From assembly GCF_001640025.1 (NCBI RefSeq), contig NC_031674.1, forward strand, positions 1,488,001 through 1,552,000: a stretch of 64,000 bases of DNA, given 5' to 3'. The stretch is from Sugiyamaella lignohabitans. Lineage: Eukaryota; Ascomycota; Dipodascomycetes; Dipodascales; Trichomonascaceae. Shown piece by piece: positions 727 to 34,353 of the stretch (positions within the stretch are counted from its first letter, which is position 1; each line of letters starts with the position of its first letter). The position numbers were made by a program, and so were the translations under genes. The notes under the pieces were generated by a model, which was given only the letters and a program-made list of their open reading frames with translations, was not told the DNA's origin and did not search any database.

Positions 727-3054
727 ATGGCTTCAGTGCAACCATCGTCACTGACAGCCTCGACATCAATTGGGTCAAGTTCATTAGAGGGAAGAGAACA
801 GCAGACACAACAACAACATCAACAACAACAACAACGTAAGCAGAATAGTGGACCTGGAGCTGGACCTTTAGGTGTAGCAGTTGGATCTGGTGGTGCAGGC
901 TCTACTACATCCGTTGCTAATGCTAGCGCCCACAACAACCCGCCAGGTATTCGTGGTGGGCCTAATACCACAGCAGTTGCAACAACATCAGCTATCACAG
1001 CCAAACCAGCCGTGACGAAACCAGCTTTTGTACCTATAAGACCAGCGTTTCGACCATTACTGCCGAAACCATGTAGTGCCAGTGCACCAACAGGCTGGAG
1101 CTCGACATCGGAAATCACTATTAGCACCCGTCATCGTGCTGATGCTGTATTACCAACCACCAGAAAGGGCCGGAAATCAGTTTCAAAAGGTGAGTATATG
1201 AAGTTACCTAGGAGGTGGTGGGATCAGAAGATCAGGGGGTGAAACAGGACTTTTTGGAAAGAATAAGGACATCACTCGGGGACTCTCGGGCAGGATTCGG
1301 AGAGCAACACGGAAGAGGAACTGGGAAGATGGACGCGGAAGATGGACACGGAAGGGAAAGACGAAAGGGGAACACGAAGGGGAAGGTATACAACAGATGG
1401 GCATTGGGTTTACTATTACAACTTGGAATTTATTGGATTATTTGTTTTTTATTGGGTTTACAGGATGAATACGACAATGGAATTATGAAATTCCAATAAA
1501 CAGCAGACGATATTTTTAATATCCGAGCAATTGGGTTGAGCAAGAGAGCGTCAATTTACAAGCGGTTTGACAGTAAAGCTTGTAAAGTCTAATATTGCAC
1601 ACCTGCATGACAATTTTTCCGCAGGCATGGAAGCAAAATTTCAGGCCCCCACGTTTTCACCCTGTTGTTCCTCGAAGTGGTTAGAGCCGGTCGGTCTTTA
1701 TTAGACTAACGAGCCGGTCCCATCGTGCCGGCAAGAGCAGAGGCCGAGTCGATCGAAAGTCCCAACCGGTTCTGTCCGTGCCCATTCTTGCATTCCCCTT
1801 TTGAATTTCACGGTGACTCTCTCCTTACCCTATCACCCACACATCCAGCCGCGCCATTACCCCTGATATTTCCTGTGCCGGCTTTTTGTACCCGGGCTAC
1901 CCGAGTCAGCAATCTCCCTCCCAGTCGACCAGAAACGACACGGCTCTCCTGCGAAGCAGGAGCAACCAGGGTCTGGGGCGGAGCCCCAGCCGCCGGAGGC
2001 ACATCCCGAACCAAGAACTAACAGGACTACAGATAAGAAACCGAGTGGCACTTCAAAACGGCGGACCAAGAGCGCAACTGGCGAGGCTGCGTCAGTAGGA
2101 GGCATTTCCGCGCAACTTCCGTCAACGATTTCGCCGTCGAGTTTAATTTCCAAACGCAGAAAGAGCCCGTCGACCGGAGCATCCGGACTGGCCACGTTAT
2201 TAGCATCCACAACCAGCCAGGCCGCAGCAGCAGCGGCATCAACCACGCCATCTCCCACGTCAGTGACGCCCAGTCTGATTTCAATTAAGCATGAACCCCA
2301 ATCCTCAACGACCCAATCTGTTCGGACATCTCCGGTAAATACTACTACCGACCCGGCATCTCTTACTAGAGAACCTTCGCCAACGGCATTCACAGTCGGT
2401 TCTTTACAAACATCCACTGCTGTTAATAACCCCACCACCACCTCATCATCCTCACTTCACAACGCCAGCATCTCCAGCATCTCCAGCAGTAATATCATCA
2501 CCTCTGCCCTCGCCAGCAACAACGCCAGTAATAACACAAATGTAGATACCCCGTCTTCAACTGCCGGACCTGCCAGCATATCCACTACTGCCACCAGCTC
2601 CACCACGAGCATCAGTACGGGCAATTCTACCTCCACAGTTAAACCACTGGCTTCTGTTTTGGCATCAGTAGCACCGGCAGCTGCTGCTGCCGCAGCTTCG
2701 GCATTAAAAATGTCGAAAAAGGGGGCTAATGTGATGCTATCGTCGGTAGCCAGTGCGTCTGATATCTGGAACACCACGGCCGATACCGAAGCGATTCCGC
2801 TATGGGAGAACAGTTCGGAGCACGAAGAAAGCCAGTCACTTGGCGGAGTCAGCGATACCGACCAATCGCCCATGACTGCCTCACTCACGCTCATGGGCGA
2901 CGATACGGCCTCGACCGAGCTGAACAACCTGAGTATGTACTCACCCGACCTGGTTCTATCACTCGAGTCGTACCTGACACCAGAACCCGATGAGAGCGAG
3001 ATCCCCAGCTACGACCCGCTCGAGTTCCTGGGTCCCACTATAAACATCTTTTGA
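727..3054 (+). CDS. Low-complexity Ser/Thr/Ala-rich protein, putative transcriptional activator (spliced)
   Basis: Exons 727-1189 and 2033-3054 give 494 residues. The 843-nt intron has a GTGAGT donor, a CTAAC branch motif at 2018-2022 and an AG at 2031-2032, and the splice restores the frame exactly. I do not recognise the family. Visible features are a Gln run near residue 33, Ala/Ser/Thr-rich tracts, a basic patch across the splice junction (about residues 138-165, including VLPTTRKGRKS and SKRRTK) and an acidic, hydrophobic C-terminus (YSPDLVLSLESYLTPEPDE and on). A basic patch plus an acidic tail suggests a nuclear activator. The VLP...GRKS stretch faintly recalls the Hap4 HAP-binding motif, but the Trp and most prolines are missing, so I do not assign it. 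The long CA-rich leader and long intron fit a regulated gene. Function is inferred only from composition. Confidence 0.6.
1946..2001 (-). repeat. GC-palindrome element, half copy (intronic)
   Basis: One arm only, carrying the CTCCTGC/GCAGGAG hairpin and the GGGGCGGAGCCCC hairpin and ending in GGAGGCA. It lies inside the long intron of the first gene, 31 nt upstream of its 3' splice site. The opposite arm is not visible. Confidence 0.85.
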
Positions 3055-3108
3055 CGAGAAAACGAGACGAAATACATGATGACGACCTTTTTCTTGGAGC
3101 GCTGCTGC

Positions 3109-3166
3109 TGCCTCCGGCGGCTGGGGCTCTGCCCCAGACCCGTGGCTCCTTTCGCTCCGTCAAGTC
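3109..3166 (+). repeat. GC-palindrome element, truncated left arm
   Basis: Starts TGCCTCCGGCGG and includes the GGGGCTCTGCCCC hairpin, then degenerates. No right arm follows before the next, complete copy at 3188. It begins 55 bases after the stop codon of the first gene. Confidence 0.75.
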
Positions 3167-3187
3167 AGTTTTGGGGAGAGGGGGTGC

Positions 3188-3329
3188 TGCCTCCGGCGGC
3201 TGGGGCTCCGCCCCAGACCCTGGTTGCTCCTGCTTCGCAGGAGTTTTGGCTGGGACCGTCGACGCAACGACTCGAGCGCAGCGAGAGGAGCAACCAGGGT
3301 CTGGGGCGGAGCCCCAGCCGCCGGAGGCA
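3188..3329 (+). repeat. GC-palindrome element, complete (module B left, A right)
   Basis: 142 bp with inverted arms. The left arm has TGCCTCCGGCGG, the GGGGCTCCGCCCC hairpin and the CTCCTGC-TTC-GCAGGAG hairpin. The right arm has CGACTCGAGCGCAGCGAGAG, then the inverted core ending GGAGGCA. It sits between two convergent genes, 29 bases beyond the derlin stop codon. Confidence 0.93.
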
Positions 3330-3357
3330 CACCCCCAGTAGAGAATGCAAATGTGTA

Positions 3358-4177: not shown

Positions 4178-4316
4178 TGCCTCCGGCGGCTGGGGCTCCG
4201 CCCCAGACCCTGGTTGCTCCTCTCGCTTCGCTCGAGTCGTTTCGTCGGGGTCCCCAGTTATCTCCTGCGAAGCAGGAGCTACGAGGTCTGGGGCAGCGCC
4301 CCAGTCGCCGGAGGCA
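4178..4316 (-). repeat. GC-palindrome element, complete (module A left, B right)
   Basis: 139 bp. The left arm carries the CTCTCGCTTCGCTCGAGTCG module and the right arm the CTCCTGC-GAA-GCAGGAG hairpin. In the right core the loop reads GGGGCAGCGCCCC rather than GGGGCGGAGCCCC, so the stem is kept with a different loop. It lies in a divergent intergenic region, upstream of the derlin start. Confidence 0.92.
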
Positions 4317-5323
4317 GCAGTCTCCTCAAAAATTCTCTGACAGATTTTGACGCAAATCAGGGTCTCTGTGCTGAGAGTGGTTGCCAGTGGTTTTGTGTCG
4401 AGTTCTCAGATTTATAATTATAACTGGTTTTAAAAGACCTAAGTTTCTTTTCCTTTACTTGAAATATTTTATTCTTCTTGCTAGTATGTCCTGTCGAAAC
4501 TTGGGAAGCTCTGCTCTGGCTCATCTCATATGTCATGCTCGCATCCAGAGAGTCCTCTGCAAGAAGCAGACGGTGGTGGTCAGTAGTATTGTCTCTTCAG
4601 TGAGATGATACAATATTATTTAGAAGCATTCAACTGCTGTATAACCAACAGAAGGACTGCGAGTTACATTTCTACTTTTTCATGGCACATTCTCTTCATC
4701 TCGAGTGAACAGTCTACTGTGCTTGACTACACCGTCTTATGGCACATAGAACCGTGGCACCTCCTCTTGAGAGAGTATAATCGGCAATATTTCACCATTA
4801 GGCCACAATTGAGACGTGTGATGCTGTCTACAGTATTAATATTCTCACCATTAATTGAATTATCAAGGGGTCAGATCAGATATTATTTGACGACATAGTG
4901 GGAGCGTGCAGGTCCAGCTGGAAAGTTATAAATAAAAAAATAAACAGGTGTTCAATTAAATAAATAACGACCCATACAATAGCAATTGGAGCCATACTGA
5001 AAATACCAAGCAATCAGAACATTAGACATTAACAGAATATCAATTATTCCAACCAACTCAGTAGCCAAAAACAAACTTAGCTAGACCTGATGAGGTTCAA
5101 AGAAGACTGCATTAGAAATGGATTCGAGTTTTAGTTTCTGGGTTGTTGGCTCTATTTCTCTCTGATGCATCTTAAATTGCTTCTAGATGTTTTTCATTCA
5201 AGTATGAAAATAACCTTCTCAATTACAGCAATTACTTCATATAATTTATTTTATATTGGAGAAGGACGAACAGCCACTGTGATTAGTGAGCTCTGAAAGG
5301 ACATGACTGAGACCCCGACGAAA

Positions 5324-5385
5324 CGACTCGAGCGCAGCGAGAGGAGCAACCAGGGTCTGGGGCGGAGCCCCAGCCGCCGGAGGCA
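5324..5385 (+). repeat. GC-palindrome element, right half only
   Basis: Begins CGACTCGAGCGCAGCGAGAG and runs to GGAGGCA. No left arm is visible. It ends 296 bases upstream of the GGPP synthase start codon. Confidence 0.88.
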
Positions 5386-7017: not shown

Positions 7018-7150
7018 TGCTTCCGGCGGCTGGGGCTCTGCCCCAGACCCCGTGGCTCCTCTCGCTTCGCTCGAGTCGGCCGTCGACGGTCTCAGCAGCT
7101 TCGCGAAGCGAAGCACAACGGGTCCGGGCAGAGCCCGGCCGCCGGAGGCA
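7018..7150 (-). repeat. GC-palindrome element, complete but diverged right arm
   Basis: 133 bp between the convergent stop codons of BTS1 and the KTR gene, ending 33 bases beyond the KTR stop. The left arm is typical with module A. The right arm is diverged: its B-type hairpin is replaced by CTTCGCGAAGCGAAG and its core reads GGGCAGAGCCCGGCCGCCGG, yet it is still self-complementary. Confidence 0.88.
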
Positions 7151-7182: not shown

Positions 7183-8370
7183 CTAAGTTGTCTTCTTTTT
7201 ATTATACTCTTCGTCGAATTTGATGTCTTTGGCGCGGAGGTAGTCGCGGAGACAGCTGGATCCGTGCCAGTCGAAGGTCTTTTCGGGCATACAGGCACAG
7301 CTGAGTCCCTTTTGGCTCTGGTCGGCCGGACAGTGGTAGAAAGGTGGGTGTCGGTATCCGATATCATCGAAATAGTGGATATCATCTTTGTCAAGGAAGA
7401 GCGAGGCAGCGATAGAGTGGACGGGCGCATCGCCCCATCGCTCATAGAAGAACCCACCGGCCTTGTCGAGGTGCTCAAAGTACTTAGAGTAGGTCTCGCC
7501 ACGCCAGAATTCCATGTCGGCGATCTCGAAATTGCTCCAGAAGTGACACAGACTGTACGTGTCGAGGTTGTTGAACGACACAAACTTCTCAAGTCGGTTC
7601 TCGTGAAGAGCTTCGGGGTACTGGCTGAGGAAATCTTTGGTGGTCTTCCACAGGGTCTTGATGGTGGCCTCGAACTCGGTGATGGAAATGGTCCAGCCAT
7701 ACTTCTTGTCGTTGTCCTTCATGAACTTGAACACGTCGTAGTTGATATCACAGTATAAGTTAGTCTCGGGCTCGACACGCCAGTAGTATCGGTACTGTTG
7801 CATCAGTGGGTGGTGGAAGAAGAATCCGCTCTCAAATCGACACATGTGTCTGTACTGCTCGTTATCTCCGTAGATGATATCATCAGCCTTCATCTGCTTT
7901 CTTGTCTCGGCGGCCTTTTTCTGGTCAATCCAGTCAGGATAACTCCAGTGACTCTCATTAATAAGACCGTACTTGGCTTCTCCGGTAATAAGACGGCTGG
8001 TAAGAATCTTGAACTCGTCAGAGAACTCCTTGTTGTTGAGGAATACCCAGTCGTAGTGGTATCTCGAGTTGAATCTGTCTTGAATAGATCGGATACTGGG
8101 CAACAGGTGCTCGAGATCCTCGTTTCGCGCCAAAGTGACAAAAGTAGCATTGGCTCGCTTGTATTTTTGTAGTTTGGAGTTCAATTCAGGCGTCATACCT
8201 GGTACATAGGGATCTTGTTCATACGATTCACCTTCTTCAGTTGTAGTTTCTTCTTCAACTGGCGTCGTTGTGAATCGTTTAAACGTGTCGGAATCAGTGT
8301 TTCGTACTGCAAACACAAACAGGAATGTGAATACCGCACCCAGGGCGATAAATAGTCTAGCGGATCTCAT
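7183..8370 (-). CDS. Alpha-1,2-mannosyltransferase, KRE2/MNT1/KTR family (GT15)
   Basis: 395-residue type II Golgi enzyme that transfers mannose from GDP-mannose onto O- and N-linked glycans of cell-wall proteins. Residues 5-21 form the signal anchor. A short acidic, Thr-rich stem (to about residue 55) precedes the catalytic domain. GT15 hallmarks are in order: YWRVEP (196-201), CHFWSNFEIAD (275-285), the strongly conserved YERWGDAPVH (309-318) and HPPFYHCP (341-348). Length and motifs are normal. The family has many paralogues (KRE2, KTR1-7, YUR1) and I cannot tell which one this is, so no symbol is given. The start at 8370 places the anchor directly at the N-terminus. Confidence 0.93.
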   Translation of the reverse strand: MRSARLFIALGAVFTFLFVFAVRNTDSDTFKRFTTTPVEEETTTEEGESYEQDPYVPGMTPELNSKLQKYKRANATFVTLARNEDLEHLLPSIRSIQDRFNSRYHYDWVFLNNKEFSDEFKILTSRLITGEAKYGLINESHWSYPDWIDQKKAAETRKQMKADDIIYGDNEQYRHMCRFESGFFFHHPLMQQYRYYWRVEPETNLYCDINYDVFKFMKDNDKKYGWTISITEFEATIKTLWKTTKDFLSQYPEALHENRLEKFVSFNNLDTYSLCHFWSNFEIADMEFWRGETYSKYFEHLDKAGGFFYERWGDAPVHSIAASLFLDKDDIHYFDDIGYRHPPFYHCPADQSQKGLSCACMPEKTFDWHGSSCLRDYLRAKDIKFDEEYNKKKTT

Positions 8371-9561: not shown

Positions 9562-9698
9562 TGCCTCCGGCGGCTGGGGCTCTGCCCCAGACCCCATGGC
9601 TACTGCTTCGCAGGAGATGACTCGGGGACCCCCCAGTAACGACTCGAGCGAAGCGAGAGGAGCAGCCAGGGTCTGGGGAGCCCCAGCCGCCGGAGGCA
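9562..9698 (+). repeat. GC-palindrome element, complete (B left, A right)
   Basis: 137 bp. The B hairpin is imperfect here (CTACTGC facing GCAGGAG), and the right core hairpin has lost loop bases (CTGGGGAGCCCCAG). First of three copies within 740 bp. Confidence 0.9.
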
Positions 9699-9877: not shown

Positions 9878-10021
9878 CGCCTCCGGCGGCTGGGGCTCCG
9901 CCCCAGACCCTGGTGGCTCCTCTCGCTTCGCTCGAGTCGTTACTGGGGGGCCACCGAGTCATCTCCTGCGAAGCAGGAGCTACGTACGGGGTTTGGGGCA
10001 GCGCCCCAGCAGCCAGAGGCA
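9878..10021 (-). repeat. GC-palindrome element, complete (A left, B right)
   Basis: 144 bp, the longest copy. The left arm is nearly consensus with module A. The right arm has the perfect CTCCTGC-GAA-GCAGGAG hairpin but a decayed end (CAGCAGCCAGAGGCA). Opposite orientation to both neighbouring copies. Confidence 0.9.
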
Positions 10022-10159: not shown

Positions 10160-10299
10160 TGCCTCCGGCAGCTGGGACTGCGCCCCAGACCCCGCGGCTC
10201 CTGCTGCGCAGGAGACTGCCCGGGGATCCCCCTGTAACGACTCGAGCGAAGCGAGAGGAGCAACCAGGGTCTGGGGCAGCGCCCCAGCCGCCGGAGGCA
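10160..10299 (+). repeat. GC-palindrome element, complete (B left, A right)
   Basis: 140 bp. The B hairpin has loop TGC (CTCCTGC-TGC-GCAGGAG) instead of TTC, with the stem unchanged. It ends 171 bases before the ALG6 start codon. Confidence 0.9.
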
Positions 10300-10470: not shown

Positions 10471-12624
10471 ATGTCGAGTCAGGGTCTGGCGTACGCGAAG
10501 AATGCGTCGGACGCCGCGAAAAGGGCTGCTGCTGGTCTGTCGGGGTCGCCTCGGGGAGGAGGAAATGGTAGTCCCAGCTTGAATCGGTCTGGTTCACAAA
10601 CCACGCCAGCCAGCTCTCCTGGACCGTCATTAGGCCACGGAAGTTCAATTACCGCTAATCGAGCCGCTGGGTCTCCAGCTAGCCAGCGTCAAAGCTCGCC
10701 TTTGAAATCGAGTCTGAAGAATGGCTCCAGGGGGGGTACCAACAGTAACAGTAATAATGGCATAATCAGTAACAATGGTAATGGAAATGGTAGTGGAAAT
10801 GGCAATGGCAATGGCAGCAATAGCAGTGGGAATGGCAGCAGTAAAAGTCATGGAACCGGTACCAAAGGATCAGGTGCTGCTGCAAACCGACCGGGGTCGT
10901 GGTCTGGATCCACTGCTGGGTCGTCTCAGTCCCAGCTTCGTAAACGAAAGGCTAATGCTGGTGGTGGTGGCGGTTCTAGTGGTCCAGGTTCTGGTGTGAA
11001 AACTACTGGATCGGCTTCGAATTCGAGTCCGTACTCATCTCGACCCGGATCTTCTGTTAATAGCCCGGCCAGATCCAGGAGAGCCAGTTATACAGGAGCA
11101 TCGGGTCTGCCTCCATCACCACTGGTCAATTCCCCGTTATTCGAATTTCTTTCGCCTTTTAAAGGCGCTTCTACTCAATGGGTGGCCAGATATATCATTA
11201 TCTCGTTTGCTATTATTATACGGTCGGCAGTAGCTCTTGGCCCATATTCAGGATTTCAGTCCCCTCCGATGCACGGAGATTTCGAGGCTCAGAGACACTG
11301 GATGGAATTGACTATCCATTTGCCAATAGATCAATGGTACTTTTATGACCTTCAATGGTGGGGACTGGATTATCCACCCTTGACAGCATATCATTCTTGG
11401 TTATTAGGCAAAATTGGTTCGGCTTTTAATCCCAGCTGGTTTGCTCTGGGCTCTTCTCGGGGTCTCGACGACTATGATTTAAAATCTTATATGAGAGCCA
11501 CTGTCATATTTTCCGAGCTGGCGGTTTATATTCCAGCTGTTATCTGGTTTGTGAGATGGAGTGGTACTAAGAGCCCTAATAAACTGAGTCCTATTGACCA
11601 GTCTATAGCAGCTGCTGCTATTATCTTTCAGCCGGCTGTTATTCTTATTGATCATGGCCATTTCCAGTATAATACGGTCATGCTCGGTCTGGCTTTGTTG
11701 TCTGTAGTCAATCTTGTCAATGGTCATCGTCTCAGCTCAGCTCTGTTCTTTGTATTGGCACTTGGTTTTAAACAGATGGCTCTTTACTACGCGCCAATCA
11801 TCTTTGCTTATATGCTGGGTGACTGTATCTTCCCTCGACCCAATATCATTCGTTTACTGGGTATTGGAGTAGTAGTGATCTTAACGTTTTCTGCACTGTT
11901 TGGACCCTTGTTATTATCAGGAGGAGTTCCTGTGATTCTTCAAAGCATCCATCGTATCTTCCCATTTTCACGGGGTCTTTGGGAAGATAAAGTCGCTAAT
12001 TTGTGGTGTACTGCCAATACTTTTGTCAAACTCAAGACTCTCTTTGACGATAAACAGCTACAATTAGCGAGTCTTGTCGCGACACTGGTTTCTATCACAC
12101 CAGCCATGATCATTGTATTTTTCAAACCACGACCGGAACTGCTTCCATGGGCATTAAGTGCTGGAGCATGGGGTTTTTTCCTGTTCTCTTTCCAAGTTCA
12201 CGAAAAAAGCGTCCTTCTGCCATTAATGCCAGCCACAGTGCTACTCTCGTACCCGGATCCGAACATTGTATCCAATGTCGTCTGGATCAACAACATCGCG
12301 ACCTTCTCACTGTGGCCCTTGCTGCACCGAGAAGGGCTCGTTCTGCAGTACGTGGTTATCGTGTTCCTGTGGAACTGGCTTATCGGCAACCTCAACCCCT
12401 CGCGGTTTTGGAAAATCCTCCCCAACTCGTGGTTCATGAGACTCGTACACACCGGCTCCTACACAGCCGCCATCGCCCTCCACCTGGCCGAATACCTCTA
12501 CCCAACGGCCCTCGGTTTCACGGCACGCTACCCGGACCTCTACATCCTCGGCAACGTGACCCTGTCATTCGCATGTTTCTCTCTCTTCTGGCTATGGACC
12601 CTATATAAACTAGCTACAATCTGA
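10471..12624 (+). CDS. ALG6: Dolichyl-P-Glc:Man9GlcNAc2-PP-dolichol alpha-1,3-glucosyltransferase
   Basis: 717 residues from the first ATG. The GT57 membrane enzyme adds the first glucose to the lipid-linked N-glycan precursor in the ER lumen. The catalytic part starts near residue 245 and shows the luminal HGDFEAQRHWME motif (acidic D270), then WGLDYPPLTAYHSW and about a dozen membrane helices. HGHFQYN follows at about residue 395. The first ~230 residues are low-complexity Ser/Gly/Asn with GN repeats. Known Alg6 proteins are about 540 residues and lack this, so the extension is unusual, but it is open and in frame. The last ~130 codons are far richer in C-ending codons than the middle of the gene. 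Leu299 in GLDYPP is encoded by CTG. Confidence 0.93.
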   Translation: MSSQGLAYAKNASDAAKRAAAGLSGSPRGGGNGSPSLNRSGSQTTPASSPGPSLGHGSSITANRAAGSPASQRQSSPLKSSLKNGSRGGTNSNSNNGIISNNGNGNGSGNGNGNGSNSSGNGSSKSHGTGTKGSGAAANRPGSWSGSTAGSSQSQLRKRKANAGGGGGSSGPGSGVKTTGSASNSSPYSSRPGSSVNSPARSRRASYTGASGLPPSPLVNSPLFEFLSPFKGASTQWVARYIIISFAIIIRSAVALGPYSGFQSPPMHGDFEAQRHWMELTIHLPIDQWYFYDLQWWGLDYPPLTAYHSWLLGKIGSAFNPSWFALGSSRGLDDYDLKSYMRATVIFSELAVYIPAVIWFVRWSGTKSPNKLSPIDQSIAAAAIIFQPAVILIDHGHFQYNTVMLGLALLSVVNLVNGHRLSSALFFVLALGFKQMALYYAPIIFAYMLGDCIFPRPNIIRLLGIGVVVILTFSALFGPLLLSGGVPVILQSIHRIFPFSRGLWEDKVANLWCTANTFVKLKTLFDDKQLQLASLVATLVSITPAMIIVFFKPRPELLPWALSAGAWGFFLFSFQVHEKSVLLPLMPATVLLSYPDPNIVSNVVWINNIATFSLWPLLHREGLVLQYVVIVFLWNWLIGNLNPSRFWKILPNSWFMRLVHTGSYTAAIALHLAEYLYPTALGFTARYPDLYILGNVTLSFACFSLFWLWTLYKLATI

Positions 12625-12650: not shown

Positions 12651-12781
12651 TGCCTCCGGCGGCTGGGGCTCCGCCCCAGACCCTGGTTGCTCCTCTCGCT
12701 TCGCTCGAGTCGTTTCGTAGACGGTCTCCTGCGAAGCAGGAGCAACCAGGGTCTGGGGCGGAGCCCCAGCCGCCGGAGGCA
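12651..12781 (-). repeat. GC-palindrome element, complete (A left, B right), near-perfect
   Basis: 131 bp, the shortest and cleanest copy. Both cores read CTGGGGCTCCGCCCCAG or its exact inverse. It starts only 27 bases after the ALG6 stop codon, so it should lie in the ALG6 3' UTR. Confidence 0.94.
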
Positions 12782-13293
12782 CGTCGACTCCGGTCAACGA
12801 ACATGTGGCCCTAAAGCGAACCTCGGCCGAGTGTATTCGGTCGGCCGAAGATTATTAACAGGCACTGCTTTGCTCTCCTTCCAGCCATTTATGCAATTAG
12901 AGAATCGAAGGCAAATCTCATACTACTTGGTATTCCGGAAGTGTGTTTGTAAGATGAAGAGAGAAAAGCTTCTCGCAGCATGAAAAATTCCTTTTATACC
13001 CTCTGCACAGCCGCGCGCGCCGGCCGATCTGACAAACCCCCTGGTATTTCCTAGTTCGACCACCCCTGAAACTGCGTCCGGGGGCTGGGGCTCCGCCCCA
13101 GACCCCGCTGCTCCTCTCGCTACGCTCGAGTCAGGGCGGCGACGGTCCTAGTAATCTCCTGCTCCGCAGGAGCTACGGGGTCTGGGGCAGCGCCCCAGCC
13201 GCCGGAGGCATAAGGGCCGCTCGTGGCGATCAGACAAACAAGTATATCAGGTATATATAGGACTAAGTGGCGAGGTAGAGAAGAAGCTAGGGT
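12782..13293. other. Convergent intergenic region, ALG6 / first GH17 gene
   Basis: Apart from the GC-palindrome at 13073-13210 I see no gene or recognised motif. Together with the copy at 12651 this gives two full elements between the same two convergent stop codons. Confidence 0.5.
13073..13210 (-). repeat. GC-palindrome element, complete (A left, B right)
   Basis: 138 bp. The left end is altered (TGCGTCCGGGGG), module A has CTACGC in place of CTTCGC, and the B hairpin has loop TCC (CTCCTGC-TCC-GCAGGAG). Stems are preserved. It ends 83 bases beyond the GH17 stop codon. Confidence 0.9.
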
Positions 13294-15211
13294 CTAGTTT
13301 TTTTCTTTGGCTCGCCGCTGGAGGGTACAGGTGGGGATGGTGATGTTCTTGAGCTCCCTGTCGGCGTTGAACAGGCCCCATTGGGTCTCCCATTGCGAGT
13401 CCGGGGTGTTCCATCTCTCCTTCCAGGGCTGGTCAATAGCCTCGAACCAGTACCAGCCAATGTCTTTATGTGTGCTGTCTAGAGGGTCGCAGATCCAGCT
13501 GTCCAGGAATGATTGTAGCTCAGACAACCCGGCTACTGAGCCCTGGATATGACCTCCTCCACTGGGCCATCCAACTTCAGAAATGATGCTGGTCGCGTTC
13601 TCGGGATGTATGTGAGGCACCACCTGTTGCAACAGGAAGTCGTACGTCCATTTGGCCGAAATACTGACATGGACTCCTCCAAAGAATGGATGGATATTGG
13701 CAGCCATGATATCCACATGCTTGGCTAGTTCTGGTGTCCATTTCGACCCGATTTCGGACGTTCCGACTGGAATGTGTCCGGCATTGATATATCGAAGGTA
13801 GTCTTGCACATAGTCAATGTACCGGATAAGCTCGCCGGTTGACAGGTCTCCTCGGAAAAGTACCTCGTTTCCAACTAGGATGGAGTTGAAGTAGTGCAGA
13901 GGGTATTTCGACAGAAGGTGCTCCATCTCGGTCAGTTGGCGAATTGACGACTCGTGGCTCTTGTCAATCCATATTCCTAATGACAACGACATGTTGGTCA
14001 GTCCCAGGTCCTGGAAAGCATTTAGGATCAGTGCTCCTTGATTACAGTCGGTACCGTATATTCTTATCCGGTCAGTGAGCTGCGACAGCAGAGCAACGTC
14101 CAAGGTAACGTCTTTCTGAGTGACCCCGCACTCTGGATACTGAGCATTACGAGGCGTGTAATTCATGCCATAGAATACCTTGTGAAGGTCTGGCCTTCCC
14201 ATAAGCGACTTGACGTCCGGGTCACTGGTACTGACTTTCTTTCTTGACGGTGGCTTGGTAATATTGCCGTTTTTCGAGCTCGACTGGTTTCGGTTTTCCT
14301 GGTATCTGTTTGTGTTAGTTGCTGTCCTGCCAGTAGGTCTTTAATCAACTTACATTATAAAACAAATCAGAAGAATCAAAAATACCGGCACAGCCACCCA
14401 TAGAGCACGTTTCAAATAGGTGATGAGCTTTGTACTTTTTCTTGCTTCCTCGTCGTCGTCATCACCTCCATCTGATGTGGTCTTGTGCTTTTCAATAATT
14501 TCGTCGCTCGACGCGTCATTATCATCGTTTGACTTGTCCAGTTTCTTGGAACTATCAGCAGCAGCAGCATCTGGTCCCGATTGGACATTGTCTCCACTGT
14601 TATCACTGTCGTCTGCTTTTTGTTGGTCTCTCCATGAATCCGACAGGGACATAACACTGCTGCCCTCAACACGATGTACACTTTGTCTTTCCTCTTTCTG
14701 AAACTCGGTGGTAGCACTCTCGTTAGGGTTTAGACTAAGTGATATCCTGCTCCGATTGGAAAAGTTTGTCAGTGACCTATTTTGAACTCGTTCTGGCCAT
14801 TTCGGTTCTCCATAGACTGTTCTTGGAGAAGTTGCCTTGCTCCCTGTTTGTGAAGGAGCGACCGGCGTGGCACCCAAACTTCCATCATCTATGACTTGTT
14901 AGTTCTAGTTCTGTCAGTTAACTAAACAATCTAATCTTACCTCTTGAGTTTTCTAGGTTCTTATCCAACAGTGACCTTAGCTCTTCCGGACGAATGCCCG
15001 CGTATTTGTCGTGGATAGGAGTCGAGGCATTGCCGATATTACTTTCATCTGCTATACCATCGGCATCTACCCCTGGAGTATTCTCAGTAGTCTCAAAATT
15101 TCTAAATGACAGAGACGCCTGGCTTTCCGACAAGACATTAAGCTCTGGAATGTTGGTGGCCGCCACCTTTGCACTTGAGGGTCCTGTTGACGGCCTAGAC
15201 TTTGTTTCCAT
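13294..15211 (-). CDS. Type II membrane-anchored GH17 beta-1,3-glucanase-like protein, copy 1
   Basis: Exons 15211-14941, 14888-14354 and 14305-13294 (introns of 52 and 48 nt) give 605 residues. About 247 hydrophilic, acidic cytosolic residues precede one membrane segment (about 250-269, ALWVAVPVFLILLICFIM). A GH17 domain fills the outside part, from about residue 305 (KVFYGMNYTPRNAQYP). Both catalytic motifs are present: VGNEVLFR with the acid/base E416, and SEVGWPSGG with the nucleophile E512. This layout matches the btgC class of filamentous-fungal endo-1,3-beta-glucosidases, which remodel wall glucan at the cell surface. The cytosolic tail carries TPIHDKY at 64-70, shared with the neighbouring paralogue. 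The start codon at 15211 is the first ATG of the frame. Confidence 0.9.
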
Positions 15212-15424: not shown

Positions 15425-17412
15425 CTAGCTGGTATTCTGTGAACACAGGGGAATAGTAATGTTCTTCAGTTTCCTATCTGCGGTGAACAGTCCCCATTGA
15501 GACTCCCACTGAAAGCTTTCTGTATTCCATTTATCCTTCCAAGGTTGATCAAATGCTTCATACCAATACCAACCGACATCAGTATCCTGATTCGTGCACA
15601 ACCAGTTGTCCAAAAACATCTGCATCTCTTTTTCTCCTGCAACTGCCTCATGTAGAGCACCTCCTCCGCTTGGCCAACCAACTTCCGATATAATGTACAT
15701 CACATTTGCTGGACTTATTCTACCCGCTACTTGTCGGAGAAGGAAGTCATAAGTCCACTTGGTAGAATTCTGGACGTTGACCCCTCCAAAAAACGGGTGT
15801 ATGTTGGCTGCCAAGATGTCGACATGCTTCGCCAGATCATGTGTCCATTTCGACCCAATTTCTGAGGTGCCTACAGGGATATCTTTTATTCCTTGTTTTC
15901 GTAGATACGCCTTGACATATTCAATATATGTAACTAGCATTTCCATTCCTGTATCCTGACGAAATAGAACGTCGTTTCCGACAATTATTGAGTTGAAATA
16001 CTGGCTTGGATAATGTTTGAGAAGCTCCCGGAGTGCTCGTACTTGTCGCAACGAGATTGCCAACGACGAGTCAACCCACACTCCTACTGAAACTGTCATG
16101 TCCAGCTTCAAATCCTGAATAGCATTGAATATATATGCCACCTGATTGCAGTCTGTTGAAAACACCTTGATCCGTTTTGTCAGCTGAGACAGGATTGCTA
16201 AATCTAGAGTAACCTCCCGCTGTTTGATATTACAATCAGGATATAGTGCGTTTCTGGGGGCATAATTAATTCCATAGAAAGTTTGATGAAGCCGGGCATC
16301 TTTCATTAGTGCTTTTACTTCGTTGTCATCTTTAGTTATTTTTTCGTATCCAATTTCTTCCAAGAACCTCGTTTTATCTGACTCAGTTTCATTACTTTTA
16401 CTGAAAATACGTTAGACCTTCTCAATTTTACTTTAAAAATAAAAGGCAGAACTTACACAGGAATACTCAAACCGATACTAAAGTAGATCGACACTGTCAA
16501 GAGAAAAAACAACAGACTCGAGAGAATCACAAGCTGTATTCTTCGAGATTTCCTTGCTTCCAGTTTTCCGATACTTGTTGATTCCGAGCTCTTTCTTTCC
16601 AAGGTTTTTTCATTAATACTCCCTTGTCTAATACTACTATTCTCGCTGCCCTCTCTTCCTCTATTATCTGTCCGAGGGTCGATATTGTCCTCATCATGGT
16701 CGTTATAGTGCTGACTTATAGTTATTGTTTCTCTGGCAGTACCAAGAAATGTACCTGTTCCGGTGGTAGTGGATACTCCAATTGTATCGCTAGCAGTTCC
16801 TGCAATAGTTCCTGTCATTCTACTAGTGACTCTCGTTACAGCTTCAGTCACGGTCCCCGACGTTACCCCCGACGTAACCCCGGAAGTTACTCCGGACGTT
16901 AACCCAGAAGTCACACCTGACGCGGTTCCAACTTCCGGTCTTGATAGTGCTGGTGTGTTTCCAAGAAGTCCGAGGTCACCACTCAATCCATCTGGTCCCA
17001 GATTGACATTAATTCCCAAACCAGGCTCTCTAAATATTCGTAGTGGTTGTGTAGCAGTCAAAGGCGGCAGAGGATGTGTGATAGATATTTGCGAATCTTC
17101 ATTTACCAAATCATGGGCCCCTGATACTCTCTCTGTTTCCCGTGACCCACTAGACATCAACGTTGTAGGAAACGCTATCTCGCCATTCAATATCTCATCC
17201 AAGTCTGCCATACTGGTGTACTTGTTGTGGATCGGTGTTGGAGGAGCTGTTAACTCTGAAACCGTGTTTGGAGGATCTACCTCATATCTGGGTGAATTGG
17301 CTCTTTTGGAAATATCCAAAGGAGCTGTTTCTTTCAAAAAGCTATTACCCTCAAATGTCGGGTCCTCTTCTACCTCTCCTGGAGGCTCCTGAGTCGATGA
17401 ATCCACGGCCAT
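15425..17412 (-). CDS. Type II membrane-anchored GH17 protein, copy 2 (altered acid/base residue)
   Basis: Exons 17412-16457 and 16400-15425 (56-nt intron) give 643 residues. The layout is as in copy 1: a ~293-residue cytosolic part, a membrane segment at about 294-318 (LVILSSLLFFLLTVSIYFSI), then GH17. The intron lies right after the membrane segment, in phase 2, exactly as in copy 1, supporting tandem duplication. The cytosolic part shares TPIHNKY (59-65) but otherwise differs, with a tandem TSGV repeat near residue 190. The nucleophile motif SEVGWPSGG (E558) is intact. The acid/base motif reads VGND (D462, codon GAC at 15973-15971) instead of VGNE, so catalysis may be weak or lost. 213 bases separate it from copy 1. 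Confidence 0.9.
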
Positions 17413-17541: not shown

Positions 17542-17596
17542 TGCCTCCGGCGGCTGGGGCGCTGCCCCAGACCCCGTTACTCCTGCTTCGCAGGAG
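17542..17596 (+). repeat. GC-palindrome element, left half only
   Basis: TGCCTCCGGCGGCTGGGGCG onward, with core loop GGGGCGCTGCCCC and a B-module hairpin TCCTGC-TTC-GCAGGA. It stops there, 130 bases upstream of the GH17 copy 2 start codon. Confidence 0.85.
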
Positions 17597-17751
17597 ATTG
17601 CTGTGATATTGGCTCAAGTACGGCATAGCTGACACTGTCTGCCTTTCACTAGACAAAATCAAGTCAAATCAATTAATCACTTCATGATCCTGGCACGAAT
17701 ATAGTTGTTCGAAGTGCGTATAGAATCAATATCAACTCCTTCCCCTGGTGT

Positions 17752-18080: not shown

Positions 18081-18337
18081 GGATATATATTAGAAGCTGA
18101 TTTCTAGCAGCCTTGTCATCGCGAGTTTCCCAAGAATCTAGTTAAGTTAAAATGTGATTAAATTACAGCTACTGAGCAAGACACCAACTCATAAACTCAG
18201 CTTCATCGATTTTGTTTGTCAAGAGCCTAATAAACTCCACATGCACAGTTACACTATAAATGCATTTCTGCATGAACTGATGTTTAAACATTATTAAGAC
18301 TGCATAAAATGCTTCTCTCTTAAATTATCGATAGGAA

Positions 18338-29356: not shown

Positions 29357-30853
29357 ATGATGAGGTCATCCAGACGCCTGTTGGATGGCGCCAAAAGACC
29401 CAAGGTCTCTAGAATTGGCCAGTTGGGATCTCTACCATCTTTGACTAGAAAGATTAGTACTACAACATCAGCGGATTTCGCTTTGACGACCCTTCCAAAT
29501 GGCGTCAGAGTGACCACCAACCCCATTCCAGGCCATTTCTCAGCCATGGGTCTTTATATTCATGCTGGCTCAAGATTCGAATCAGAAAAGTTCTCTGGAG
29601 TGTCTCATATTATAGATAGATTGGCATTTAAATCGACTACATCTCGCAGTTCACAACAAATGGAGGAACATTTGCAGGAGTTGGGAGGCAACTACATGTG
29701 TGCCTCTTCAAGAGAAACTCTTATGTATCAAGCTTCAGTATTTCATGATCATTCGGATCAGATGTTTGAAGCGCTTGCTGATACAGTCAAGAATCCCCTA
29801 ATTACAGATGAGGAAGTGGCACAACAGCTAGACACGGCAGCTTATGAAATCTATGAGATTTGGCAGAAACCAGAATTGATTCTTCCAGAAGTTGCTCATA
29901 TGACTGCATTTAAAGGTGGTTTGGGAAACCCATTACTATGTCCCGAAGACAGATTGTCAGTGATAGATGCAAAGTTGATTCGCGAGTATCGAGATACTTT
30001 TTATCAACCAGATAGAATAGTTGCCTCATTTGTAGGCGTTCCTCATGAAAAGGCCGTAGAGCTCGCTACCAAACACTTGGGAGATTTAAAATCCAACCCT
30101 AAGGCTGCTAGCTCTATTGATAATCAACCATCTATTTATACAGGAGGAGAACAGATTCTGCCACTTCCTGAACCAATTGGCAATCTGCCTCAATTTTATC
30201 AATTACACGTTCTGTATCGTGGCGTATCTATCGCAGACGATGATGTCTACGCTCTAGCATGTTTGCAAACCCTGCTTGGTGGTGGAGGTTCTTTCTCAGC
30301 CGGTGGTCCTGGCAAGGGAATGTATTCTCGTCTGTACACAGATGTGTTGAACTGCTATGGATACATTGAGAGCTGTCTTGGAATCAACCATTCCTACTCA
30401 GACGACGGCTTATTCGGCATTTCTGCTTCCTGTATTCCAAATGCTGCACCCTACCTCTCCCAAGTTATCGGACTTCAACTGTCACTTCTTATGACTAAAG
30501 GACAAGGTGCTCTGAACTATACAGAGGTCGAGAGAGCCAAGAAGCAGTTACGTAGCTCTGTTCTGATGAACCTCGAGTCTAAGATGGTTGAGCTTGAAGA
30601 TCTTGGCCGCCAGATTCAACTCAACAACAAAAAAGTGCCTGTTGCCGAGATGGTGGAAAAAATCGATGCGCTGACGGCCGAAGACCTTCGTCGTGTTGCC
30701 GAGCGCGTGCTCACTTCGAGCCCACCTACCCTCGTCATGCAAGGAGCTTCACGAGAGGCGTTCGGCGATGTCCAAGATACCCTCAAACGCTACGGTCTTG
30801 GCGGCGAGATCAAGGAAACCGAGCCTGCTAAGACTTCCTGGTGGAAAAGATAG
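29357..30853 (+). CDS. MAS2: Mitochondrial processing peptidase alpha subunit
   Basis: 498 residues. MPP cuts targeting peptides from imported proteins in the matrix. This subunit binds substrate, while the beta subunit holds the zinc site. The basic N-terminus (MMRSSRRLLDGAKRPKVSR) is a targeting signal. The M16 domain starts at TTLPNGVRVTT. The zinc motif is degenerate (HIIDRLAFKST instead of HxxEH), as expected for alpha. The glycine-rich substrate loop LLGGGGSFSAGGPGKGM is present. A second in-frame ATG follows the first directly. The last 60 codons are richer in G/C at third positions. A GC-palindrome starts 66 bases after the stop. Confidence 0.96.
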   Translation: MMRSSRRLLDGAKRPKVSRIGQLGSLPSLTRKISTTTSADFALTTLPNGVRVTTNPIPGHFSAMGLYIHAGSRFESEKFSGVSHIIDRLAFKSTTSRSSQQMEEHLQELGGNYMCASSRETLMYQASVFHDHSDQMFEALADTVKNPLITDEEVAQQLDTAAYEIYEIWQKPELILPEVAHMTAFKGGLGNPLLCPEDRLSVIDAKLIREYRDTFYQPDRIVASFVGVPHEKAVELATKHLGDLKSNPKAASSIDNQPSIYTGGEQILPLPEPIGNLPQFYQLHVLYRGVSIADDDVYALACLQTLLGGGGSFSAGGPGKGMYSRLYTDVLNCYGYIESCLGINHSYSDDGLFGISASCIPNAAPYLSQVIGLQLSLLMTKGQGALNYTEVERAKKQLRSSVLMNLESKMVELEDLGRQIQLNNKKVPVAEMVEKIDALTAEDLRRVAERVLTSSPPTLVMQGASREAFGDVQDTLKRYGLGGEIKETEPAKTSWWKR

Positions 30854-30918: not shown

Positions 30919-31056
30919 TGCCTCCGGTGGCTGGGGCTCCGCCCCAGACCCCGTGGCTCCTGCTTCGCAGGAGACTGCTGGGACCGTCCTCGAACCGACT
31001 CGAGCGCAGCGAGAGGAGCAGCGGGGTCTGGGGCGGAGCCCCAGCCGCCGGAGGCA
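30919..31056 (+). repeat. GC-palindrome element, complete (B left, A right)
   Basis: 138 bp between the convergent stops of MAS2 and SEC62, 66 and 39 bases from them. The left arm begins TGCCTCCGGTGG (one change). Both cores keep full stems. Confidence 0.93.
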
Positions 31057-31094
31057 GGGCAGCTCGAAAAGACAATGCGTGAAAATTAGAAAGT

Positions 31095-32499: not shown

Positions 32500-32570
32500 C
32501 TTGGTCGGTTTGGTCTTTTTTTTCACTGGATCACTCGAGTTCTCCGTCTGGCTCTATGCTGTATCTCTTC

Positions 32571-32638
32571 TACACGTGTAATTTAAATCACCCCGGCGTC
32601 GGTCGAGCTAGTTTGCGCCATCGCGCTTCGTCACGTGA
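32571..32638. promoter_or_regulatory. Pair of CACGTG E-boxes
   Basis: TACACGTGTA at 32571-32580 and TCACGTGA at 32631-32638, both perfect palindromes and 58 bp apart, lie 72-140 bp upstream of the SEC62 start. CACGTG is the core bound by bHLH factors such as Cbf1 and Pho4. Binding is predicted from the motif only. Confidence 0.45.
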
Positions 32639-33022
32639 TTACGGTTGATCTGGAACCCGTCTCTAGATCTGTTTTGGGCTCGGAATTCTGTTAAATAAAT
32701 TTTTTTATTTTTAATTTGCGTTTCTGATTCGGTTCGGTGTGTTTTCTATAGCATACTGAGTGTTTGAAGTTAATTGCAAAATTACAAGTGATCACTTCAT
32801 AAGTAGCATGAGAAGACTATGAATCTCTCTATATACACTCCAAGAAAGCAGCATATTATAAACCACTGGTTGAAAAGTGATATCAAAAGCAGCCGAAATT
32901 GTCCACAAAATACGACAATGGCACTCTCAGAACCACTTCTTCTTTCGAATAATCCAATATCCAAGCCAAATTTCACACAGAACCCAGAGGTATTGCCCAT
33001 TTGACGGGGATTTCTGACCGTT

Positions 33023-33087
33023 GTCGGATGCCGACTTACTCCTTCCGACTACATCCCCCTGCAGGTCGGATAAAACCCTTTCGGATG
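33023..33087. promoter_or_regulatory. CGG-N3-CCG site with additional half-sites
   Basis: GTCGG-ATG-CCGAC at 33023-33035 is a perfect inverted repeat of the CGG-N3-CCG type recognised by Zn2Cys6 factors. Further half-sites are CCGAC at 33045, TCGGA at 33066 and TCGGA at 33081. The cluster is 110-175 bp upstream of the FAH-domain gene. Confidence 0.45.
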
Positions 33088-33197
33088 AAAGATCACCCCC
33101 ACTGACTGCCCCCACATTTGGGTGATACTATTCCCAGCTCGGAGAAGTAATTTACCAGGCTGACTTCATCAGTCAGACGTTGAGATTCGTAAAAACA

Positions 33198-34197
33198 ATG
33201 TCGTCTAAGGAGCTGTTTAAAGTAAGTTATACGAGATTTCACAAGATATTTTTACGAGAGATTCCACATCTGGGGTTTAAAGAAACGAGGACGAGCATGA
33301 GACGATAATAAACTCAGATCGTAATCTAACATTTTCCTACAGCGTTTGGTGAGATTTGTCGCTACTGACGGCAAAATCTACTATGGAGATGCCATTCTCC
33401 AGGCTGGCAACACCGATACCAGATTTGCCAAGGAAGCCAGAATCATTAGCGGTGATATTTTTGGTGATTATAAGATTGAAAACAAAACCGTGGCCATTCG
33501 CAGATTGCTGACCCCTCTTGCTCCTGAACATGTAGCAACTGTTCGATGTCTAGGACTCAATTACCGTAAACATGCTTTGGAAGCCAAGATGCCCATTCCA
33601 AAGTACCCTGTCCTTTTCTACAAGCCCAAGACTGCATTGAGTGCTACTGGTGACGATATTGTAGTTCCCACACCTGCATTGATCAAAAACCAAACAGACT
33701 ACGAATGTGAGTTGGTTGTAGTCATTGGTCGCGAATGTAAAGACATTACCCCCGAACAAGCCTATGATTATATTTTAGGATATGCCGTTGGCAACGACGT
33801 TTCTCACCGTGACTGGCAATTGAACAGAGGAAGTCAATGGAACCTCGGCAAAATGTTCGACGGATTCGCTCCATTTGGACCTGCCATTGTCAGCAAAGAG
33901 GTCACTGGAACCCCCGACTCACTCCAGATTTACGCCAAGCTCAATGGCGACAATCTAGTACAAAACGAATCCACTGGCGACATGATTTTCAACGTCCCGG
34001 CTGCCGTCTCCTTCCTCAGTCAAGGCACAACTCTTCTTCCTGGCGATGTTATCTTCATGGGCACACCCTCCGGCGTCGGAATGGGCCGAAGCCCACCTGT
34101 CTGGCTCAAAAATGGCGACGTTGTCGAAGTCGGCCTGAGCAAAGTTGGCTCCATTGTCAATAAAGTTGTTTTCGAGGACCAGCGAGCTAAACTCTAG
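33198..34197 (+). CDS. Fumarylacetoacetate hydrolase-domain protein (FAHD1-like)
   Basis: Exons 33198-33221 and 33343-34197 (121-nt intron) give 292 residues. The first exon codes only eight residues (MSSKELFK). The family includes acylpyruvases and oxaloacetate decarboxylases such as FAHD1 and yeast Fmp41. The N-terminal RLVRFVATDGKIYYGD, the metal-site region around YECELVVVIGREC, and GYAVGNDVSHRDWQ and GTPSGVGMGRSPPVWLKNGD are typical. No clear mitochondrial signal is seen. The exact substrate cannot be read from sequence. A truncated GC-palindrome follows 37 bases after the stop. Third-position G/C rises in the last 100 codons. Confidence 0.9.
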
Positions 34198-34233
34198 AAT
34201 ATATACACTGATATCTGAGCTGGATGGGGGGTC

Positions 34234-34353
34234 TGCCTCCGGCGGCTGGGGCTCTGCCCCAGACCCCGTAGCTCCTGCTTCGCAGGAGATGACTGGGGAT
34301 CCCAGCACAACGACTCGAGCACAGCGAGAGGAGCAGCGGGGTTTGGGGCGGAG
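34234..34353 (+). repeat. GC-palindrome element, right arm truncated (B left, A right)
   Basis: The left arm and both inner modules are present, but the right arm stops at GTTTGGGGCGGAG. The terminal GCCCCAGCCGCCGGAGGCA is missing. This is the last copy in the window. It lies between tandem genes, 37 bases after the FAH stop. Confidence 0.9.

What the first reader, a model, noticed from the sequence alone, without database searches (positions are those of the whole stretch)
1946..34353. Dispersed family of GC-rich foldback elements, 9 complete and 5 partial copies
A 131-144 bp element recurs at 3188, 4178, 7018, 9562, 9878, 10160, 12651, 13073 and 30919, with partial copies at 1946, 3109, 5324, 17542 and 34234. 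Arms are inverted copies starting TGCCTCCGGCGG and ending CCGCCGGAGGCA. It has no coding capacity and I saw no clear target-site duplication. Such arrays are familiar from organelle genomes (GC clusters, palindromes of green-alga organelles) but not from yeast nuclear DNA. It could be a non-autonomous mobile element or a structured RNA/DNA element.
Basis: seen in the sequence. Interest (0 to 1): 0.85.

Follow-up and report, generated by a model that had tools for sequence, protein, structure and literature searches.

The report
Yeast hairpin repeats with mutation halos
A yeast nuclear genome carries thousands of short GC-rich foldback repeats, and in the stretches examined the silent sites of neighbouring genes drift towards C on whichever strand points at a repeat, which suggests that the repeats are places where chromosomes stall or break and are repaired sloppily.

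Summary
In detail: 9 complete and 5 partial copies lie where stated. They belong to a genome-wide family: 6,871 arms within 2 mismatches in 15.93 Mb, reversed-pattern control 0; 1,082 copies have both ends exact. Copies are inverted repeats built of smaller hairpins whose loops vary more than their stems. I found no target-site duplication (86 copies), no true nested insertion in the arm stretch searched, and neither of the two transposase families searched.

The unexpected result is a polar halo. Within about 300 bp, the strand running 5'->3' towards a copy gains C at silent sites (C4 0.19 to about 0.5) while G stays nearly flat; the sign flips across the copy. It marks 26 of 28 gene ends within 250 bp of a full copy, 12 of 16 near a partial copy, and 2 of 91 ends over 1,500 bp from any, and recurs in 27 other loci on four contigs.

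Best reading: long-resident fragile hairpins, repaired with strand-polar errors. The halo is shown; break, repair and polymerase are inferred. Related to mitochondrial GC clusters and REPINs, but a member of neither.

The parts
1944..2001 (-). partial copy (X-type half)
   Evidence: nhmmer model 1-58
3109..3169 (-). partial copy (half unit with a damaged Y-like hairpin)
3188..3329 (+). full copy; single strand folds to one long hairpin, -75.4 kcal/mol, z -14.4
4178..4316 (-). full copy
5304..5385 (+). partial copy (Y-type half)
7018..7150 (+). full copy, diverged; H2 hairpin of one arm changed on both sides and still paired
9562..9698 (+). full copy
9879..10021 (-). full copy
10160..10299 (+). 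full copy
12651..12781 (-). full copy with short centre
13073..13210 (-). full copy
17542..17605 (+). X-type half without a halo in the adjacent gene end: candidate young or inactive copy
30919..31056 (+). full copy between convergent genes
34234..34353 (+). partial copy lacking the last part of its second arm (model 1-123)
12382..12621 (+). halo: last 80 codons of the ALG6-type gene, C4 0.52, G4 0.20; its first 80 codons show the opposite, G4 0.34, C4 0.13
7186..7425 (-). halo: last 80 codons of the Ktr-type mannosyltransferase gene, C4 0.54, G4 0.07
13297..13536 (-). halo: last 80 codons of the GH17-like gene, C4 0.48, G4 0.21
30611..30850 (+). halo: last 80 codons of the M16 peptidase gene, C4 0.41, G4 0.18
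34627..34866 (+). halo with reversed sign: first 80 codons of the WD40/RING gene, G4 0.58, C4 0.11, facing the copy at 34234-34353

Best explanation
The elements are long-resident, self-folding fragile DNA sites. Shown: most full copies are an X-half and a Y-half in inverted orientation; every half is built of smaller hairpins whose loops vary more than their stems; partial copies end preferentially near the hairpin tip rather than inside an arm; and each side of a copy carries a halo of a few hundred bp in which the strand running 5'->3' towards it has gained C (from T and, more weakly, A) with little or no gain of G. Inferred: the inverted repeat extrudes a hairpin or cruciform that stalls forks or is cut at the tip, giving hairpin-capped breaks; ends are opened and resected outwards; repair synthesis by an error-prone polymerase leaves polar errors (dG put into the strand synthesised outwards, or dC put into the strand approaching the hairpin); repair from sister or ectopic copies keeps the shared outer arms uniform while the tip region drifts; rare repair of a break elsewhere with a copy as template founds new copies.
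For: Halo: 4-fold sites in the 80 codons nearest the end, 3'-facing ends (<300 bp) C4 0.483+/-0.023 (28 ends) vs 0.211+/-0.010 (40 ends >2500 bp away), p=1.7e-10, G4 unchanged p=0.76; 5'-facing ends G4 0.392+/-0.035 (13) vs 0.152+/-0.012 (35), p=2.8e-6, C4 unchanged p=0.25. 2-fold sites within 150 bp: T->C on the towards strand 0.36 to 0.81, A->G 0.45 to 0.47. Rotation test 0.117 vs 0.000+/-0.010, maximum of 1000 rotations 0.030. Repeats in 27 other loci. Halo at 26 of 28 ends within 250 bp of a full copy, 12 of 16 near a partial one, 2 of 91 ends >1500 bp away; ends in between were left out. Control hairpins show none: -0.016+/-0.012, n=48. Codon positions 1 and 2 shift less than silent sites, which suggests accumulation under selection rather than one event. 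Of 64 one-ended partials, 55 end in the central 51 of 133 model positions, p=5e-15; without a profile, 134 of 139 outer 12-mers are followed by both inner hairpins, so copies cut inside an arm are rare. Outer arms of full copies 70% perfect (98 arms), centres far more diverged, median 0.35 and mean 0.47 edits per consensus base against 0.57 for shuffled. Precedent: in S. cerevisiae inverted repeats cause hairpin-capped breaks opened by Sae2 and raise mutation on both sides through Pol zeta (PMC3681665, passages).
Against: One genome, no outgroup: substitution direction is inferred from composition. Skew on the two sides of one copy is not correlated (rho 0.15, p=0.23, 63 copies), nor is the 3-11 bp G-run with the outer C-skew (rho -0.02, 193 sides), which a single activity or age per copy would predict. 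Arms of halves are as uniform as arms of full copies (p=0.84), so loss of one half does not stop upkeep. The near flank has the opposite sign (G-run at 3-10 bp; 1,074 GGGGNN vs 47 CCCCNN genome-wide), which the model does not explain. The profile is least informative in the centre and short remnants can fall below its threshold, so the tip-breakage count leans that way. Of 18 H2 stems that depart from the commonest, 9 stay fully paired and 9 do not, and the paired ones include shared variants, so stem upkeep is real but partial. T->C odds ratios by neighbouring base run from 2.5 to 7.4 with no recognised motif, so no polymerase is fingerprinted. GC-rich control hairpins numbered only 4. Only about 2% of the genome was read.
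Confidence: 0.5

Rival explanations
1. A non-autonomous transposon (MITE-like) that amplified recently and prefers certain intergenic sites; the uniform arms are terminal inverted repeats copied by a transposase.
For: Thousands of near-identical arms, inverted termini, avoidance of ORFs (14 of 112 copies in ORFs of at least 150 aa, 0.09 per kb, against 0.76-1.28 per kb in intergenic classes), neighbours slightly more alike than expected (0.543 vs 0.465, reached by 13 of 2000 permutations), a few copies without a halo, arms of halves as uniform as those of full copies.
Against: No target-site duplication in 86 copies; no true nested insertion genome-wide in the arm stretch searched, the 3 pattern matches being rearrangements; no Tc1/mariner DDE_3 or Y1 transposase match (other families not searched); centres much more diverged than arms; the halo is unexplained.
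Confidence: 0.2
2. The copies settle at sites that already have the polar skew (origins, promoters, recombination hotspots) and do not cause it.
For: The association alone does not give direction; flanks are GC-rich.
Against: Only 2 of 91 gene ends >1500 bp from any copy exceed the threshold; one belongs to a codon-biased gene with no G-ending 4-fold codon there and the other rests on 23 sites. Element-free gaps show no positive skew (37 gaps in three classes; means -0.073, -0.008 and 0.016).
Confidence: 0.15
3. GC-biased gene conversion at recombination hotspots explains the GC rise.
For: GC3 rises from 0.42 to 0.70 towards a copy and stays at 0.33-0.43 in genes without one.
Against: That process is strand-symmetric (established knowledge); here G rises little or not at all on the towards strand at 4-fold or 2-fold sites and the sign flips across the copy.
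Confidence: 0.04
4. The copies are functional RNA or regulatory hairpins (terminators, divergent promoters) and the flanking skew follows from transcription leaving the element, for example R-loop formation.
For: Mostly intergenic; hairpins with mostly paired stems and free loops; the outward G-rich strand resembles GC skew downstream of promoters (recalled).
Against: Host-gene transcription cannot be the cause, since the sign depends on which gene end faces the copy; copies lie in convergent, tandem and divergent gaps (1.28, 0.90 and 0.76 per kb); no Rfam match overlaps a copy. No transcriptome was available.
Confidence: 0.11

Closest known systems
Yeast mitochondrial GC clusters (GC42 and relatives; PMC4478555, passages read)
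   Same: Short GC-rich palindromes, loops change more than stems, mergers of smaller units, substitutions next to copies associated with their presence.
   Different: Nuclear here, thousands of arms, about 130-145 bp composite X+Y units; a strand-polar silent-site halo over hundreds of bp, which the passages I read do not describe.
REPINs / REP doublets (PMC3116915, abstract read)
   Same: Two inverted units with a variable spacer forming a hairpin, extragenic, many copies.
   Different: Bacterial and linked to RAYT transposases; no Y1 transposase domain found here; doublets are not better conserved than singlets here.
Fragile inverted repeats (Alu quasi-palindromes) in S. cerevisiae (PMC3681665, passages read)
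   Same: Works like: hairpin-forming inverted repeat, breakage expected at the tip, mutation on both sides.
   Different: That is a 320 bp repeat in a reporter assay with mutation measured over kilobases; here a natural family with an evolutionary, strand-polar imprint of about 0.5 kb.
GC-rich arm-like motifs of Desulfovibrio and some actinobacteria
   Same: 24 stretches in genome contigs share the arm's 30 specified bases around short variable spacers, 19 of them from Desulfovibrio and its order; one Desulfovibrionaceae stretch has 32 bases of the arm, from its second base on, exactly (L041).
   Different: Sequence beyond the motif differs; local skew weak (0.065 and 0.027, n=24). Homology versus convergence not resolved.

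Membership tests
MITE (non-autonomous DNA transposon) | terminal inverted repeats | tested here: met
   inverted arms TGCCTCC...GGAGGCA; 1,082 copies of 127-157 bp with both 13-base ends exact
MITE (non-autonomous DNA transposon) | target-site duplication | tested here: not met
   86 full copies, no clear enrichment at any offset 0-11 for k 3-10 (best: 3 seen, 0.33 expected, among some 1,150 tests)
MITE (non-autonomous DNA transposon) | autonomous partner or matching transposase | tested here: inconclusive
   only Y1_Tnp and DDE_3 were searched, both 0
MITE (non-autonomous DNA transposon) | empty sites in relatives | not testable with these tools
   the tool states that G000 has no relatives here
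Mitochondrial GC cluster | GC-rich palindromic hairpin, changes concentrated in loops | tested here: met
   138 half-units: H2 stem fully paired in 129, the commonest 6-bp stem in 120; within those 120 the 3-base loop departs from TCC in 35
Mitochondrial GC cluster | located in mitochondrial DNA | tested here: not met
   copies found lie on four contigs of more than 2 Mb; the window's carry nuclear genes
REPIN/BIME | inverted doublet with spacer | tested here: met
   of 92 full copies 74 pair X with Y, 2 are XX or YY, 16 have an unclassified side; same H3 class in 3% of 29 pairs vs 42% shuffled, X subtypes counted apart
REPIN/BIME | RAYT (Y1 transposase) in the genome | tested here: not met
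   PF01797: 0 matches; control rings in 5 of 14 genomes
REPIN/BIME | doublets more conserved than singlets | tested here: not met
   0.63 (98 arms) vs 0.58 (64 arms) edits per arm, p=0.84
Fragile inverted-repeat site (mode of action) | breakage at the hairpin tip | tested here: inconclusive
   sequence footprint fits: 55 of 64 partials end centrally, 134 of 139 outer 12-mers keep both inner hairpins; breaks themselves not observed and the profile leans towards central ends
Fragile inverted-repeat site (mode of action) | elevated mutation on both flanks | tested here: inconclusive
   composition halo on both sides; mutation rate not measured
SINE / retroposon | pol III promoter boxes, A-tail, 5' truncation | not tested
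   no dedicated scan; partial copies are X halves (26), Y halves (28) and unclassified (9) of 63 sorted, so truncation is not one-sided

The most novel reading that the evidence does not exclude
Several thousand self-folding nuclear repeats, kept uniform by repair rather than by transposition, act as natural fragile sites that write a strand-polar, C-directed mutation gradient into the ends of most genes beside them. A genome's codon usage and base composition would then be shaped locally by a repeat family, and the gradient would be a readable fossil of where breaks occurred and which strand was resynthesised.
Probability: 0.42. Interest if true: 0.9.

Novelty: new variant of a known kind. 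Interest (0 to 1): 0.8.

Why it matters
If the causal reading holds, this genome carries a natural replicated experiment of thousands of fragile hairpins, each with two flanks whose silent sites record polarity and reach of repair errors. It would connect laboratory work on palindrome-induced breakage with genome-wide base composition, explain local codon usage without selection or GC-biased gene conversion, and offer a test of which polymerase fills in at hairpin breaks. Even if the copies only settle at pre-existing sites, they would mark a class of polar chromosomal sites that I did not find described. It also extends organelle-type GC clusters to a nuclear genome.

Tried and rejected
Target-site duplications: none clear. 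Nested insertions as a source of empty sites: the 3 genome-wide matches to one exact pattern, which covers insertion 2-32 bases after CTCCGGCGGCTGGGG, were a full copy with a truncated second arm, a tandem duplication of flank plus arm, and a slippage duplication. Cross-species spread through spurious ORFs: a three-frame translation found 272 word-sharing candidates and none at E<=0.001. Viral contigs: 0. GC-biased gene conversion was my first reading of the GC3 gradient; rejected because the change is strand-asymmetric. An 'age' reading in which the G-run flank and the C-halo accumulate together: no correlation. A Pol eta-type context (T before A/T): odds ratios 4.0-5.7 for the four next bases, not distinctive; by previous base 7.4 after A to 2.5 after G. 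Control hairpins with 11-bp arms gave only 3 cases, so weaker ones were used: 48 with 8-bp arms, 13 with 9-bp arms, and 4 that were GC-rich, mean 0.049+/-0.038; GC-rich hairpins outside the family are therefore not properly controlled. Skew about midpoints of gaps with copies was positive in all three classes but within about 2 s.e. (0.044-0.055); midpoints are not copy positions. My first parse of the stems (122 of 138 half-units) left out most of the mismatched ones; one search recounts all 138.

Rows dropped before counts: ORFs under 150-250 aa as set per script; ORFs overlapping a copy by more than 30 bp; gene ends 250-1500 bp from a copy; three of 30 loci (L001, L011, L012) because they lie in the window or the block. 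The 30 loci are best matches to one copy, not a random draw; by coordinates L017 and L020 overlap by about 1.7 kb. One copy can face two gene ends, so ends are not fully independent. In one search, 29 of 49 full copies had both H3 motifs intact for the centre comparison. In one search, 50 of 57 adjacent pairs were listed.
Full report
1. What is there. The window is bases 1,488,001-1,552,000 of contig C2 of a 15,932,016-base genome in four contigs. A review lists Sugiyamaella lignohabitans CBS10342 at 16.0 Mb and 4 chromosomes (PMC5499181, passages); the match in size and contig number is my basis for thinking that this is that yeast, and no call names it. Window neighbours encode ordinary yeast nuclear proteins. 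A profile search finds 9 full and 5 partial copies at the stated coordinates. Genome-wide the 19-base arm TGCCTCCGGCGGCTGGGGC occurs 3,401 times forward and 3,470 times reverse at up to 2 mismatches, control 0; 1,082 copies have both 13-base ends exact and a length of 127-157. In 264 kb read in full (window plus C1:190,001-390,000) there are 114 copies, 49 full and 65 partial. They are clustered: 100 in the 200-kb block, with 20-kb bins holding 0 to 22.

2. Anatomy. Each half reads TGCCTCCGGCGGC, then a hairpin H2 (TGGGGC-nnn-GCCCCA), a linker GACCC..., then a hairpin H3. H3 is X (CTCCTGC-nnn-GCAGGAG and shorter relatives) or Y (CTCTCGC-nnn-GCTCGAG). Of 92 full copies 74 pair X with Y, 2 are XX or YY and 16 have an unclassified side; in 29 paired copies the two arms share an H3 class in 3% against 42% when shuffled, X subtypes counted apart. 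So a full copy is a defined composite rather than two chance neighbours. Of 138 half-units, 120 have the commonest H2 stem; of the 18 others, 9 stay fully paired through changes or deletions on both sides (several of these are shared variants), 3 lose only an outer pair or gain a bulge, and 6 have a mismatch. Within the 120, the 3-base loop departs from TCC in 35. A full copy folds as one long hairpin (-75.4 kcal/mol, z -14.4); a half folds into local hairpins. Outer arms are uniform (70% of 98 arms of full copies perfect over 29 specified bases); centres are much more diverged (29 of 49 full copies usable: median 0.35, mean 0.47 edits per consensus base; shuffled 0.57).

3. Not a plain transposon. 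No direct repeat clearly flanks 86 full copies. Of the three matches to a pattern for insertion into an arm, none is a nested copy. Adjacent copies keep a distance: of 50 listed pairs (57 in all) with spacers up to 24 nt, 44 have 16-20 nt, 5 have 21-24, one has 13 and none fewer. The immediate flank is a G-run on the left and a C-run on the right: GGGGNN before the arm 1,074 times, CCCCNN 47 times. Y1_Tnp and DDE_3 gave no match; other transposase families were not searched.

4. The halo. GC3 of genes with a copy less than 400 bp downstream is 0.70 in the last 75 bp and falls to 0.42 beyond 900 bp; genes without one within 2,500 bp stay at 0.33-0.43 (28 and 38 gene ends, p=3.7e-10 for the last 100 codons). 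Split by base, this is not a GC effect but a C effect on one strand. At 4-fold sites of genes whose 3' end faces a copy, C rises from 0.19 to 0.47-0.55 and G stays at 0.12-0.15 (75-300 bp; in the nearest 75 bp C is 0.38, 81 sites); in genes whose 5' end faces a copy, G rises from 0.135 to 0.42-0.48 and C stays at 0.17-0.18 (75-300 bp). In both cases the strand running 5'->3' towards the copy gains C. Two-fold sites separate the changes: within 150 bp T->C on the towards strand goes from 0.36 to 0.81, A->G from 0.45 to 0.47 (0.41-0.54 in other bins). First positions of Leu and Arg codons agree (TTR to CTR 0.40 to 0.84-0.87, 63 codons; AGR to CGR 0.39 to 0.70-0.73, 32 codons). The skew reaches 0.117 over all bases 30-300 bp away against 0.000+/-0.010 in 1000 rotations; 81% of 114 copies are positive. 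Twenty-seven loci outside window and block repeat it within 300 bp: C4 0.519, G4 0.192, T->C 0.84, A->G 0.443 at 3'-facing ends; G4 0.414, C4 0.184 at 5'-facing ends; G4 0.192 is slightly above the 0.14-0.17 further out.

5. Nearly one to one. Of 28 gene ends within 250 bp of a full copy 26 exceed 0.35 towards-C at 4-fold sites, of 16 ends near a partial copy 12, of 91 ends more than 1,500 bp from any copy 2; ends in between were left out. The three lowest ends near a copy are all at halves, which may be young or inactive. Codon positions 1 and 2 shift less (C 0.186 to 0.237 and 0.236 to 0.299, against 0.19 to 0.49 at 4-fold sites), which suggests that the change built up under protein-level selection; this argues against a one-time mutational burst at insertion and for long residence. 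Ordinary short hairpins (48) and element-free gaps (37) show no such skew; only 4 GC-rich control hairpins were found, too few to decide whether any strong GC hairpin would do the same.

6. Mechanism. Partial copies end near the tip in 55 of 64 cases, and 134 of 139 outer 12-mers are followed by both inner hairpins, as expected if the tip region breaks; the profile leans towards central ends, and this is a footprint, not an observed break. In S. cerevisiae, inverted repeats cause hairpin-capped breaks opened by Sae2, followed by Pol zeta-dependent mutation on both sides (PMC3681665, passages). I infer the same cycle here. The polarity needs a strand-specific step: either error-prone fill-in running outwards that puts dG opposite T (and A), or dC insertion into the strand approaching the hairpin, as Rev1 is known to do (recalled). 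Uniform arms beside diverged centres suggest short conversion tracts between the several thousand arms; mild likeness of neighbours (13 of 2000 permutations) fits this but also fits local spread. Results against: no left-right correlation of skew within copies, no link between G-run and halo, halves as uniform as full copies.

7. Relatives. Four stretches of the sequence occur in no paper of the library searched as exact strings. Searches for yeast nuclear palindromic repeats and MITEs and for strand asymmetry or mutation around inverted repeats listed no account of such a family or such a halo by title or abstract among the papers shown; I read passages of four papers and the abstract of one, so this is not proof of absence in print. 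Mitochondrial GC42 shares loop-biased change and substitutions beside copies (PMC4478555, passages). Rice transposon excision goes with raised flanking mutation; the passages read mention no strand polarity of the mutations (PMC5023962). Bacterial stretches, 19 of 24 from Desulfovibrio and its order, share the arm motif but not what follows it; the short motif occurs 39 times in those loci, the 24 selected ones included, against 5 after mono-nucleotide shuffling. Whether this is convergence or descent is open.

Noticed in passing
window 12803-12958 (-): H/ACA snoRNA snR5 (Rfam RF01252, 52.8 bits) about 20 bp from the full copy at 12651-12781.
   Followed up: no
window 17749-18096: Three head-to-tail copies of a 116-bp unit, 99% and 82% identical to the first.
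   Followed up: no
window 13294-14202 and 15425-16306 (-): Two neighbouring genes, 71% alike over 245 bp; the first matches GH17 below Pfam's cut-off. The first ends 84 bp from a copy and shows the halo, the second is 2.2 kb away and does not.
   Followed up: partly
window 51419-52339 (+): Gene with no A- or G-ending 4-fold codons in its last 80 codons: extreme codon bias without a copy nearby.
   Followed up: no
L079 (C1:2345000-2345650): Tandem array of whole copies in 155-bp units with identical 16-nt spacers.
   Followed up: partly
L078 (C3:1831100-1831550): Two compact halves arranged tail-out, 13 nt apart, next to AT-rich DNA: a different, inside-out arrangement.
   Followed up: no
L041 and other bacterial loci L031-L054: Desulfovibrio and some actinobacterial contigs carry a 32-base motif of the yeast arm or close variants of it.
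   Followed up: partly
C1:1019900-1020043, C3:235438-235588, C3:1785702-1785853: Rare copies appear to have C-runs before both arms instead of G-runs, so the flank type seems shared by both sides of a copy (G-run left-right rho 0.35).
   Followed up: no
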